Shown here: one piece after another, positions 21,569 to 56,273 of the stretch
How the letters are laid out: each line of letters starts with the position of its first letter
How positions within the stretch are numbered: position 1 is the first letter of the stretch
Assembly (NCBI GenBank): GCA_030615765.1
Contig: JAUWYP010000001.1
Span: 62,001 to 126,000, forward strand
Source of the DNA: Dehalococcoidia bacterium
GTDB taxonomy: Bacteria > Chloroflexota > Dehalococcoidia > SM23-28-2
DNA: 64,000 bases
Direction: 5' to 3'
Translations under genes and position numbers: made by a program
Notes under the pieces: generated by a model
The model's database searches: none
Told to the model about the DNA's origin: nothing
The model's input: only the letters and a program-made list of their open reading frames with translations

Positions 21569-21637
21569 TTATTGACGGTGTAACGCATGGACGGCTCTAG
21601 GCGTCTTACCATGGCAACCCGAGAAGCGGAGAGTACG

Positions 21638-53887: not shown

Positions 53888-53956
53888 GGAGAGATTTCAT
53901 GGCGCTTGCAGGCCAAACAGTGTTACATTATTGTGCCTTCGATCGTCTAATACTCG

Positions 53957-55123
53957 ATGGCACGAGCCACGTACATGACAAACAATAGGGAAGCCCAGCA
54001 GGCCGGTCTGGAGCGAGCTGACATTCGTCAGAAGGTGTTGCAGGCGGTCAGCCGCTTGCCCCAACGCCAGCGGCGCCTTCTGCTCCTGCGCGAGCTGGAG
54101 GGCCTGAGCTATGCCCAGATCGGGGAAACGACGGGCATCTCCCCGAGCAAGTTGGCAAAGATGCTGCATCGGGCCCGGCTGGCGTTCAGGCAAGCCTACG
54201 CCAGCCAGGTGGGGGCCAAGGAGAGGAAGGAGAAGTGCCGCCGCCTGGGACACCTACTCTCTGCCCTTTATGACGGTGAGTCGCTGGGGCCGGAGCGCCG
54301 GAAAGCGGTGGAGCACCTGGCTGAATGCCCCGACTGCCGCAGGATACAGGACAAGCTTGCTTCGACCTCTGAGCTTCTGGCCACGCTGGTGCCCACACCG
54401 GCGCCGCCTGGGCTGGCCGACCGCATCCTGGCTCGAACGGCCGTCAGCGGGATGTTGCTGGCTGGTGGCGGTGGCACGATGTGGAAGCTACCCCTCATGC
54501 TGCTGGCTGGAGGCGGCTTCATCGCCGGCGTGGTGGCAGTGGTGCTGCTCCTATGGCAGGACTCGGAGTCACCCATCCCCTTGGTCCTGCCGCCGATGGC
54601 CAGCCCTACGGCTACCGCTACGCCCACCGCCGTTGCCGCTGTCACGGCAACACCTTCGGAGCCCCCAGTTCTCACCCCCGCAGTAACGCCCATTCCCCCG
54701 GAGACGATCACCGCGACGCCCAGCCCCTCGCCGACGGCTTCACCCACACCTGTGGAGACGGCGACTCCCAGTCCCACCCCTACTCCCACACCCACGCCGA
54801 CACCAACGCCCACGCCCACTCCGACGCCGACACCCGTCCCCGGGCCGGGTGGAATACAGGGGTCGGTGACCTGCCAGGGCCAGGCGCTGGCCGGTGCCCA
54901 GGTGAGCGTGACCGGGCCGTTTCCTCAGGGAGGGCAGGTCTGGTCGGGCGTGACAGGAGGAGACGGGGCCTTCAGTACGGGACTCATCCTCGATGCCGGT
55001 TCTTACGTTGTAGCCATCGTCTCGACCGGTACCAGCTACGACAGCGTGCCGGTGACCGTACCGCCTGGCAGCTACGCCAGCGTCTTGGCGCCGTGCACTC
55101 TGGTATATGGGCCCGGCTACTAG
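53957..55123 (+). CDS. Sigma-region-4/anti-sigma zinc-finger fusion with exposed C-terminal domain
   Basis: 388 residues. Residues about 25-80 are a sigma-70 region 4 helix-turn-helix (LPQRQRRLLLLRELEGLSYA, then QIGETTGISPSKLAKML). Residues about 95-120 form an anti-sigma zinc finger (Cys at about 95, then HLAECPDCRR). One membrane helix follows (MLLAGGGFIAGVVAVVLLLW near 180), then a Thr/Pro repeat linker and a C-terminal beta-sandwich like the carboxypeptidase regulatory domain (QGSVTCQGQALAGAQVSVTG). There is no region 2, needed for promoter -10 recognition, so it cannot work as a whole sigma factor. The 70 bases upstream hold no region 2 either. Confidence 0.8.
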   Translation: MARATYMTNNREAQQAGLERADIRQKVLQAVSRLPQRQRRLLLLRELEGLSYAQIGETTGISPSKLAKMLHRARLAFRQAYASQVGAKERKEKCRRLGHLLSALYDGESLGPERRKAVEHLAECPDCRRIQDKLASTSELLATLVPTPAPPGLADRILARTAVSGMLLAGGGGTMWKLPLMLLAGGGFIAGVVAVVLLLWQDSESPIPLVLPPMASPTATATPTAVAAVTATPSEPPVLTPAVTPIPPETITATPSPSPTASPTPVETATPSPTPTPTPTPTPTPTPTPTPTPVPGPGGIQGSVTCQGQALAGAQVSVTGPFPQGGQVWSGVTGGDGAFSTGLILDAGSYVVAIVSTGTSYDSVPVTVPPGSYASVLAPCTLVYGPGY

Positions 55124-55172: not shown

Positions 55173-56273
55173 CTAGGCTGACTGCTTGCCCTGCCTGAAC
55201 TCGGCGAAGGCCTCGCCCAGGATGCGCCAGACCACCTCCGGCCTGGCACAGCGGACGCGGGACATGCTGGTCGTCCCCTCGTAGCTCCAGGCCGCCAGGT
55301 GAGTGGCACCCACTTCCCGTGCGACCCTCAGGCCCATCCTTAGTTCCTCCTCGCGCCCCGCCGGCACCGAGAAGGCCTGCAGCCAGAGCTGGAGGTCGCG
55401 GCCGTAGCGACGGGCAGCATCCGCTGCTCGCTGGCCGTAAGCCCGCATGAAGCGCTCCGGGTCGGTGCCGAAGAAGTACCAGTAGGGGTCGCAGGCGAAG
55501 ATGTCCAGGTCGGCGATGCCTGCCGCCGCCTGCCAATCGTCGATGCCAAAGTGGAGAAGAGCAGATGAAGCCTCCTCTCCCTGCCCGGCGCCGCTCACTA
55601 GTCGGAGGAGGCGCTCCTCGACCTCGGGGAAACCCATCCGGCGGTAACCGGTAGGGACGAGGCAGAGGGCGTTGGCCAGGCCCTTCTCGTGCCCGAGGCG
55701 GCAGAGCTCGGACAGGAGATCCAGGAGCGACGCCTCACGAAAAGCGCGGGCCTCGTCTGTGAACCTTGTGGGCAGAGCATGGCCGAAGCGGTCGCGGAAT
55801 GCTCTCTGGCAGATGTCGCAGTGGCACGCCCAGGCACCGCTGAGGTCGCCGGCGAGCAGGCCAAAGTAGAAATGAGGCTCGTCCCACAGGATGACGTCAG
55901 CGCCGGTGCCCGCTGCCGCCTCCACCCACTGGCGGAGGAAGCGCCTGGTGTCGGGGTGGTTCGGACAGGCGGCTGGAGCCCGTCGGCCATCGGAGAGAAG
56001 CTGCCAGGCCTCGGGATGGTCGAGAGGAAAGCGAGAGAAGGTCTCGCCGCTGAAGATGGCGGCCACGCCCCAGGGGTCGAGCCAAGCCTGCAGCCCGGCC
56101 TGGTGGGTGGCGCGCACGATCTCACGCATCGTGTCGGCGTAGTAAGCCAGGTCGGTCTCGGTGAGGCAGTGGACGACGTAGGTGCAATGGTGGGCCACCA
56201 TGTCAGCCAGATCGGCTTCAACATGGCGGATGGTACGGCCGCTGAAGTAGCTAACGCCAGTGTGCAAGGCCAT
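55173..56273 (-). CDS. Unknown protein, possible glycoside-hydrolase-like barrel
   Basis: 366 residues, ATG start, no signal peptide, mostly alpha/beta with many Trp and Tyr. GADVILWDEPHFYFG near residue 128 and LDIFACDPYWYFFG near 258 place acidic residues at strand ends, as in TIM-barrel glycosidases, and CHCDICQRAFRDRFG near 150 adds a Cys pair. I do not recognise a named family. It is convergent with the sigma/anti-sigma fusion. Confidence 0.6.
   Translation of the reverse strand: MALHTGVSYFSGRTIRHVEADLADMVAHHCTYVVHCLTETDLAYYADTMREIVRATHQAGLQAWLDPWGVAAIFSGETFSRFPLDHPEAWQLLSDGRRAPAACPNHPDTRRFLRQWVEAAAGTGADVILWDEPHFYFGLLAGDLSGAWACHCDICQRAFRDRFGHALPTRFTDEARAFREASLLDLLSELCRLGHEKGLANALCLVPTGYRRMGFPEVEERLLRLVSGAGQGEEASSALLHFGIDDWQAAAGIADLDIFACDPYWYFFGTDPERFMRAYGQRAADAARRYGRDLQLWLQAFSVPAGREEELRMGLRVAREVGATHLAAWSYEGTTSMSRVRCARPEVVWRILGEAFAEFRQGKQSA

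What the first reader, a model, noticed from the sequence alone, without database searches (positions are those of the whole stretch)
53957..55123. Sigma region 4 fused to a zinc-finger anti-sigma, membrane helix and exposed domain
Sigma and anti-sigma are usually two proteins. Here region 4 (the -35-binding part) and the anti-sigma zinc finger are one chain through the membrane, and region 2 is absent from the protein and from the DNA just upstream. It may be a membrane-held DNA-binding regulator, or a decoy that binds the -35 site.
Basis: partly seen in the sequence, partly recalled or inferred. Interest (0 to 1): 0.6.

Follow-up and report, generated by a model that had tools for sequence, protein, structure and literature searches.

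The report
Membrane-bound sigma region 4, region 2 lost
In one small genus of Chloroflexota bacteria, a protein that fuses a promoter-recognising sigma factor to its own membrane-held inhibitor has lost the half needed to start transcription but is still conserved and sits under a stress-sigma-type promoter, so it probably now regulates other sigma factors instead of acting as one.

Summary
Window 53957-55123 (+) encodes 388 aa: sigma region 4, zinc anti-sigma domain (C-x25-H-x3-C-x2-C), one membrane helix, Pro/Thr stalk, transthyretin/CnaB-like exposed domain. There is no region 2, and no room for one: an in-frame stop lies three codons upstream and the MFS gene ends 69 nt before the ATG.
It is not a bad start call, a sequencing artefact or a fresh pseudogene. 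Two other species of the genus (Dehalococcoidia MAGs) have the same start, synteny and domain order, with dN/dS about 0.14-0.25. Every other Chloroflexota relative whose reading frame I examined carries region 2. The nearest, full-length sigma/anti-sigma/TM fusions in another family, are 45-48% identical. So it is an old, retained deletion of region 2 from a known kind of protein. No region-2-only protein was found in the three genomes.
All three copies share an ECF-type promoter (TGTTAC-N17-CGTC, 9 nt before ATG) matching a promoter class also found before an ECF gene, tad-pilus genes and others.
Best explanation, mechanism inferred: a membrane-held feedback regulator of ECF-type promoters. 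Region 4, clamped by its own anti-sigma domain, acts by -35 competition, with or without trapping sigma2 of another ECF. It cannot be a sigma factor alone.

The parts
53920..53951 (+). ECF-type promoter block GTGTTAC-N17-CGTCTAAT: -35 TGTTAC 53921-53926, -10 CGTC 53944-53947; 9 nt from CGTC to the ATG, so the mRNA is probably leaderless
   Evidence: Conserved in 3 species, 14 of 17 spacer bases invariant; unique in each genome within 3 mismatches
53957..55123 (+). Gene for the R2-less sigma4 / anti-sigma / TM / exposed-domain protein (388 aa)
   Evidence: orthologs with the same start in G001 and G002
54029..54181 (+). Sigma region 4 (residues 25-75), HTH with the HRAR motif kept
   Evidence: PF08281 2.6e-15; fold match to sigmaE region 4 on -35 DNA, 2h27
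54236..54340 (+). Zinc anti-sigma domain, zf-HC2 match (residues 94-128), C-x25-H-x3-C-x2-C
   Evidence: PF13490; motif; ligands invariant in 3 species
54392..54439 (+). PTPAPPGLADRILART: expected anti-sigma helix 4 (sigma2-binding in class I anti-sigma domains); most conserved cytoplasmic segment
   Evidence: 0.96 mean identity within the genus against 0.78 for R4; role of helix 4 from PMC7406223
54494..54553 (+). Single transmembrane helix (residues about 180-199)
   Evidence: Kyte-Doolittle 2.57; helix 185-202 in model (low confidence)
54563..54847 (+). Pro/Thr/Ser-rich stalk (residues 203-297)
   Evidence: 68% S/T/P
54839..55120 (+). Exposed beta domain, transthyretin / CnaB-like fold
21579..21608 (+). 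Second promoter of the same class (GTAAC-N17-CGTCTTA), before a small ORF upstream of a dihydroorotate dehydrogenase gene; orthologous sites in G001 and G002

Best explanation
Shown: the protein shares ancestry with one-chain ECF sigma / zinc anti-sigma / membrane / sensor-domain proteins. It lacks sigma2 in all three sampled species of the genus, is under purifying selection, and is preceded by a conserved ECF-type promoter. Inferred: it cannot open promoters by itself, because sigma2 is absent. Its region 4 is held by its own anti-sigma helices 1-3, as RslA holds isolated sigma4 of SigL, until a signal at the exposed domain or at the zinc site frees it. Freed or membrane-held, region 4 then competes for the -35 element of ECF-type promoters (its own TGTTAC first), while the anti-sigma helix 4, which has no sigma2 in its own chain, can catch sigma2 of another ECF factor. 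Net effect: a feedback brake on the ECF regulon to which its own gene appears to belong.
For: Ortholog conservation, synteny MFS-[gene]-AAA, same start, dN/dS 0.14-0.25 over residues 1-202. All other relatives examined have R2; the nearest are full-length fusions in family f110, 45-48% identical over R4+ZAS, grouped with the genus at 93/82. Full-length relatives have TGTAAC-N17-CG(T/G)T just upstream, the same geometry as here. Promoter class GTWAC-N17-CGTCTRA: 12 exact sites in 3 genomes against 0 for the reversed pattern. Sites lie before an ECF operon (all 3 species), the R2-less gene (all 3) and a small ORF near pyrD (2, plus a near-match in the window); before tad-pilus genes in 2 genomes (a third probable site in G001 has N16); and before a CAP-domain gene in 1. 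The spacer of this gene's promoter is unusually conserved (14/17 against 7/17 and 4/17), as expected for an extra bound protein. The helix-4 segment is the most conserved cytoplasmic part although its usual cis partner is gone (PMC7406223). Isolated sigma4 binds -35 DNA (2h27) and is clamped by a zinc anti-sigma domain that blocks DNA and RNAP (RslA, PMC2877774).
Against: No experiment. The recognition helix differs from that of the ECF whose own promoter carries the motif (here K/R/N-L/V-A/G-K-M/L-L, there N-V-R-V-T-L), so the two may not read the same -35. That ECF has its own co-encoded membrane partner. GTAAC...CGTC is a rather general ECF promoter shape, and the -10 here (TCTAAT) could also serve the primary sigma. 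The structure model of the cytoplasmic part is poor (mean pLDDT 53), so self-docking of R4 on the anti-sigma domain is not shown. Signal and protease are unknown.
Confidence: 0.42

Rival explanations
1. A plain membrane anti-sigma factor in trans: the anti-sigma domain (helix 4 above all) traps another ECF; the fused region 4 is only an intramolecular plug and no longer touches DNA.
For: Helix-4 segment most conserved; gene under an ECF-type promoter like many anti-sigma genes; zinc ligands kept.
Against: R4 keeps its HTH and HRAR motif and is as conserved within the genus as between two genera of full-length relatives (0.78 and 0.78); no cognate ECF gene is adjacent.
Confidence: 0.22
2. A positive, membrane-anchored transcription factor: region 4 contacts the -35 and the RNA polymerase flap and helps another holoenzyme at its own promoter.
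For: Region 4 and own-promoter conservation; the first residues of the chain are conserved too (0.85).
Against: Without sigma2 it would have to share the promoter with a sigma that already has its own region 4; no precedent found.
Confidence: 0.12
3. Half of a two-subunit sigma factor, as SigO-RsoA in Bacillus subtilis, with region 2 supplied by another protein.
For: Region-4-only chain; two-subunit sigma factors exist (PMC8103513).
Against: Every region-2 match in the three genomes lies in a frame with region 4 or in the primary sigma; no region-2 gene nearby.
Confidence: 0.07
4. A decaying remnant: region 2 was lost and the rest persists for no strong reason, or only for its exposed domain.
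For: R2 loss is derived; R4 has the higher dN/dS values (0.22-0.40, partly because its dS is low).
Against: Open frames, promoter, start and zinc ligands kept in three species with synonymous divergence of about 0.6-0.7; dN/dS under 1 in every segment where it could be computed.
Confidence: 0.08

Closest known systems
Fused ECF sigma / zinc anti-sigma / TM proteins (groups ECF48, ECF52, ECF53; SCO4117 of Streptomyces coelicolor)
   Same: Region 4, zf-HC2 anti-sigma domain, TM helix, proline-rich stalk, exposed C-terminal domain (PMC8999054, PMC5826349)
   Different: Those have region 2 and are thought to act as sigma factors after release; here region 2 is absent. ECF52 is described as restricted to Actinobacteria.
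Full-length Chloroflexota fusions, e.g. G245:C153 (L093), G739, G744, G745, G749, G750
   Same: R4+ZAS 45-48% identical, same domain order, same promoter geometry
   Different: Region 2 present; different exposed domains
IutY of Pseudomonas putida (ECF243)
   Same: Sigma and anti-sigma in one membrane chain, activated by regulated proteolysis (PMC8999054)
   Different: Region 2 present; iron cell-surface signalling type; not compared by sequence here
RslA-SigL of Mycobacterium tuberculosis
   Same: Zinc anti-sigma domain bound to an isolated sigma4 and blocking DNA and RNAP (PMC2877774; 3hug)
   Different: Two separate proteins; SigL has region 2
SigO-RsoA of Bacillus subtilis
   Same: Sigma region 4 in a chain separate from region 2
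   Different: A partner with region 2 exists there, none found here; no anti-sigma or membrane part

Membership tests
ECF sigma factor (functional) | Region 4 (-35 recognition) | tested here: met
   PF08281 2.6e-15
ECF sigma factor (functional) | Region 2 (-10 recognition, core binding) | tested here: not met
   No match in the protein; no space upstream
Fused ECF/zinc-anti-sigma/TM proteins | Region 2 and region 4 in one chain | tested here: not met
   Region 2 missing in all three species
Fused ECF/zinc-anti-sigma/TM proteins | zf-HC2 anti-sigma domain, TM, P-rich stalk, exposed domain after region 4 | tested here: met
Fused ECF/zinc-anti-sigma/TM proteins | Common descent with them | tested here: met
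   Tree: genus groups with the full-length f110 fusions, 93/82 (not starred), inside a set of fusions
Fused ECF/zinc-anti-sigma/TM proteins | Assignment to a numbered ECF group | not tested
   Group models not available; classification paper not held
Class I zinc anti-sigma factor | Hx3Cx2C motif in a helical domain before a TM | tested here: met
   helices (low confidence)
Class I zinc anti-sigma factor | Cognate full ECF sigma encoded next to it | tested here: not met
   Neighbours are MFS and AAA genes in 3 species
Class I zinc anti-sigma factor | Binds and inhibits a sigma factor | not testable with these tools
   needs binding assays
Two-subunit sigma (SigO-RsoA type) | Separate region-2-only protein in the genome | tested here: not met
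   All region-2 matches are in full sigma genes in G000, G001, G002; assemblies are incomplete

The most novel reading that the evidence does not exclude
A sigma fragment converted into a switch: region 4, locked in its own chain by an anti-sigma domain and tethered to the membrane, acts as a signal-gated repressor that occupies ECF -35 elements and/or traps sigma2 of other ECF factors, giving an envelope-sensing brake made from a sigma factor that can no longer start transcription.
Probability: 0.35. Interest if true: 0.7.

Novelty: new variant of a known kind. Interest (0 to 1): 0.5.

Why it matters
Fused sigma/anti-sigma membrane proteins are thought to work by releasing an active sigma factor. 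A conserved version that cannot be a sigma factor shows that the rest of the chain (region 4, anti-sigma domain, sensor) can be kept for another job. It makes a simple question testable: can an isolated sigma region 4 serve as a signal-controlled promoter competitor or anti-sigma plug in nature? The finding also exposes a small ECF regulon (an ECF operon, tad pilus, a CAP-domain surface protein) in an uncultured Chloroflexota lineage.

Tried and rejected
Missed upstream start or frameshift: rejected (stop codon three codons upstream, 69 nt intergenic, same in three species). Assembly artefact: rejected by two independent MAGs with public records CP070630.1 and LJUA01000009.1. Orphan region 2 elsewhere: none found. 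Other R2-less copies in 400 phylum and 393 class genomes: none among the roughly 50 relatives whose frames I read; weaker matches were not all read. Structure of residues 1-203: too poor to show docking; only the R4 part found sensible PDB matches, none below E 0.001. Literature: no R4-only anti-sigma fusion turned up in the full-text searches, three of them aimed at this; the ECF re-classification paper and the original SigO-RsoA paper are not held.

Full report
Observation. The gene at 53957-55123 (+) encodes 388 aa. Pfam finds region 4 (Sigma70_r4_2, residues 25-75, 2.6e-15) and a zf-HC2 zinc finger (94-128), both over their cut-offs, and no region 2. NCBIfam agrees: the listed sigma models match only by their region-4 end. 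The zinc motif is C94-x25-H120-x3-C124-x2-C127, the single hydrophobic helix lies at about 180-199, and 203-297 is 68% S/T/P. The last 94 residues are predicted all-beta (mean pLDDT 72) and match the carboxypeptidase-D regulatory, transthyretin and CnaB folds. The open frame starts two codons before the ATG and the upstream MFS gene ends 69 nt before it, so region 2 cannot be hidden upstream.

Not a truncation artefact. The window comes from a Dehalococcoidia-like MAG (2.08 Mb, 56 contigs, 92.7% complete); the class name is inferred from the record titles of its two sister species. Those two species of the same genus carry the gene: CP070630.1 (single contig, 84% identity over residues 1-201) and LJUA01000009.1 (78%). 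All three have the same N-terminus (MAR..YMT), lack region 2, and lie between the same MFS and AAA-ATPase genes. Over residues 1-202 dN/dS is 0.14-0.25 with dS about 0.6-0.7.

No partner with region 2. The genome has eight region-2 matches, each in a frame that also has region 4 or in the primary sigma. The same holds in the two sister genomes. This argues against a SigO-RsoA type split sigma, within the limits of incomplete assemblies.

Origin. A profile of the three proteins against 400 phylum and 393 class genomes found many relatives. In every one of the roughly 50 whose frame I read, region 2 precedes region 4. Many are fusions with a TM helix and stalk, a kind known as ECF48/52/53 and IutY (PMC8999054; SCO4117, PMC5826349). 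The nearest are six full-length fusions in another family, f110 (45-48% identity over R4+ZAS); L093 has R2, R4 and zf-HC2 by Pfam. A tree of R4+ZAS puts the three R2-less proteins beside them with support 93/82, moderate and not decisive. Region 2 was therefore most likely lost on the line to this genus. The only other family member held (G003) had no match at the threshold used.

Promoter. Just before the gene, GTGTTACATTATTGT-N4-TCGATCGTCTAAT-N2-TCG|ATG is nearly invariant in all three species, while DNA 5' of it has diverged. It contains TGTTAC-N17-CGTC, with 9 nt from CGTC to the ATG in all three, so the mRNA may be leaderless. All six full-length relatives have TGTAAC-N17-CG(T/G)T before their start; none of 2000 mononucleotide shuffles gave that in even three of six, although the six are related sequences. 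In the three genomes GTWAC-N17-CGTCTRA occurs 12 times exactly against none for the reversed pattern. A scan of spacings 13-21 with GTAAC gave, in the three genomes, nine sites at 17, four at 16 and none at other spacings. Sites lie before an ECF gene in all three species (probable autoregulation), before this gene in all three, and before a small ORF upstream of a dihydroorotate dehydrogenase gene (two exact, one near-match in the window at 21579). Others lie before tad-pilus genes (two exact, a third probable with N16 in G001) and before a CAP-domain gene next to a sortase gene in G000. One site, at window 22967, lies at the 3' end of the dihydroorotate dehydrogenase gene and may be chance. 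So the R2-less gene looks like a member of an ECF regulon. That the ECF on contig C56 drives it is inference.

How it may work. In class I anti-sigma domains helix 1 binds sigma4 and helix 4 binds sigma2 (PMC7406223). Here helix 4 has no sigma2 in its own chain, yet its segment (146-161) is the most conserved cytoplasmic part (0.96 mean identity; R4 0.78). Isolated sigma4 can bind -35 DNA (2h27, the best fold match), and a zinc anti-sigma domain can clamp an isolated sigma4 and block DNA and RNAP (RslA, PMC2877774). The recognition helix differs from that of the full-length relatives and of the C56 ECF (both N-V-R-V-T-L or close), while this gene's -35 has TGTTAC where theirs has GTAAC. This is suggestive of region 4 reading its own promoter, but it is one lineage only. 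The spacer of this promoter is more conserved than in the ECF and pyrD promoters (14/17 against 7/17 and 4/17), which fits an extra bound protein; the tad promoter, compared in two species only, is also 14/17. I therefore favour a signal-gated brake on ECF-type promoters, by -35 competition and/or sigma2 capture. Every functional step is inferred.

Limits. The cytoplasmic structure model is poor. Other phyla were not searched for R2-less copies. The sign of regulation, the signal and the protease are unknown.

Verdict. Real, conserved, and a new variant of a known kind: a fused sigma/anti-sigma membrane protein that has lost sigma2.

Noticed in passing
window 21579-21608; G000:C9:940, C10:29923, C56:64664 and orthologous sites in G001/G002: Small ECF regulon with promoter GTWAC-N17-CGTCTRA: an ECF operon, tad/Flp pilus genes, a CAP-domain protein beside a sortase gene, and a small ORF before pyrD.
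   Followed up: partly
L211:3931-5301 (G000:C56): The autoregulated ECF is followed, overlapping by 4 nt, by a 456-aa putative membrane protein without any Pfam match, conserved in position in the genus; possibly a new type of anti-sigma partner.
   Followed up: no
window 53957-54210: Synonymous divergence in the region-4 part (dS 0.34-0.43) is about half that of the rest of the gene, hinting at an extra nucleotide-level constraint at the 5' end; a 118-aa antisense ORF (53897-54253, -) overlaps it.
   Followed up: no
window 55173-56273 (-): A 366-aa gene lies between the fusion and the AAA gene in this species; the corresponding interval in the two sister species is too short to hold it.
   Followed up: no
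G000:C6 13143-13871 (L044), orthologs L047, L048: Canonical ECF plus zf-HC2 anti-sigma pair, the two ORFs in the same frame and separated by only a stop codon and a few codons, followed by a lipoprotein-like gene; conserved in the genus.
   Followed up: no
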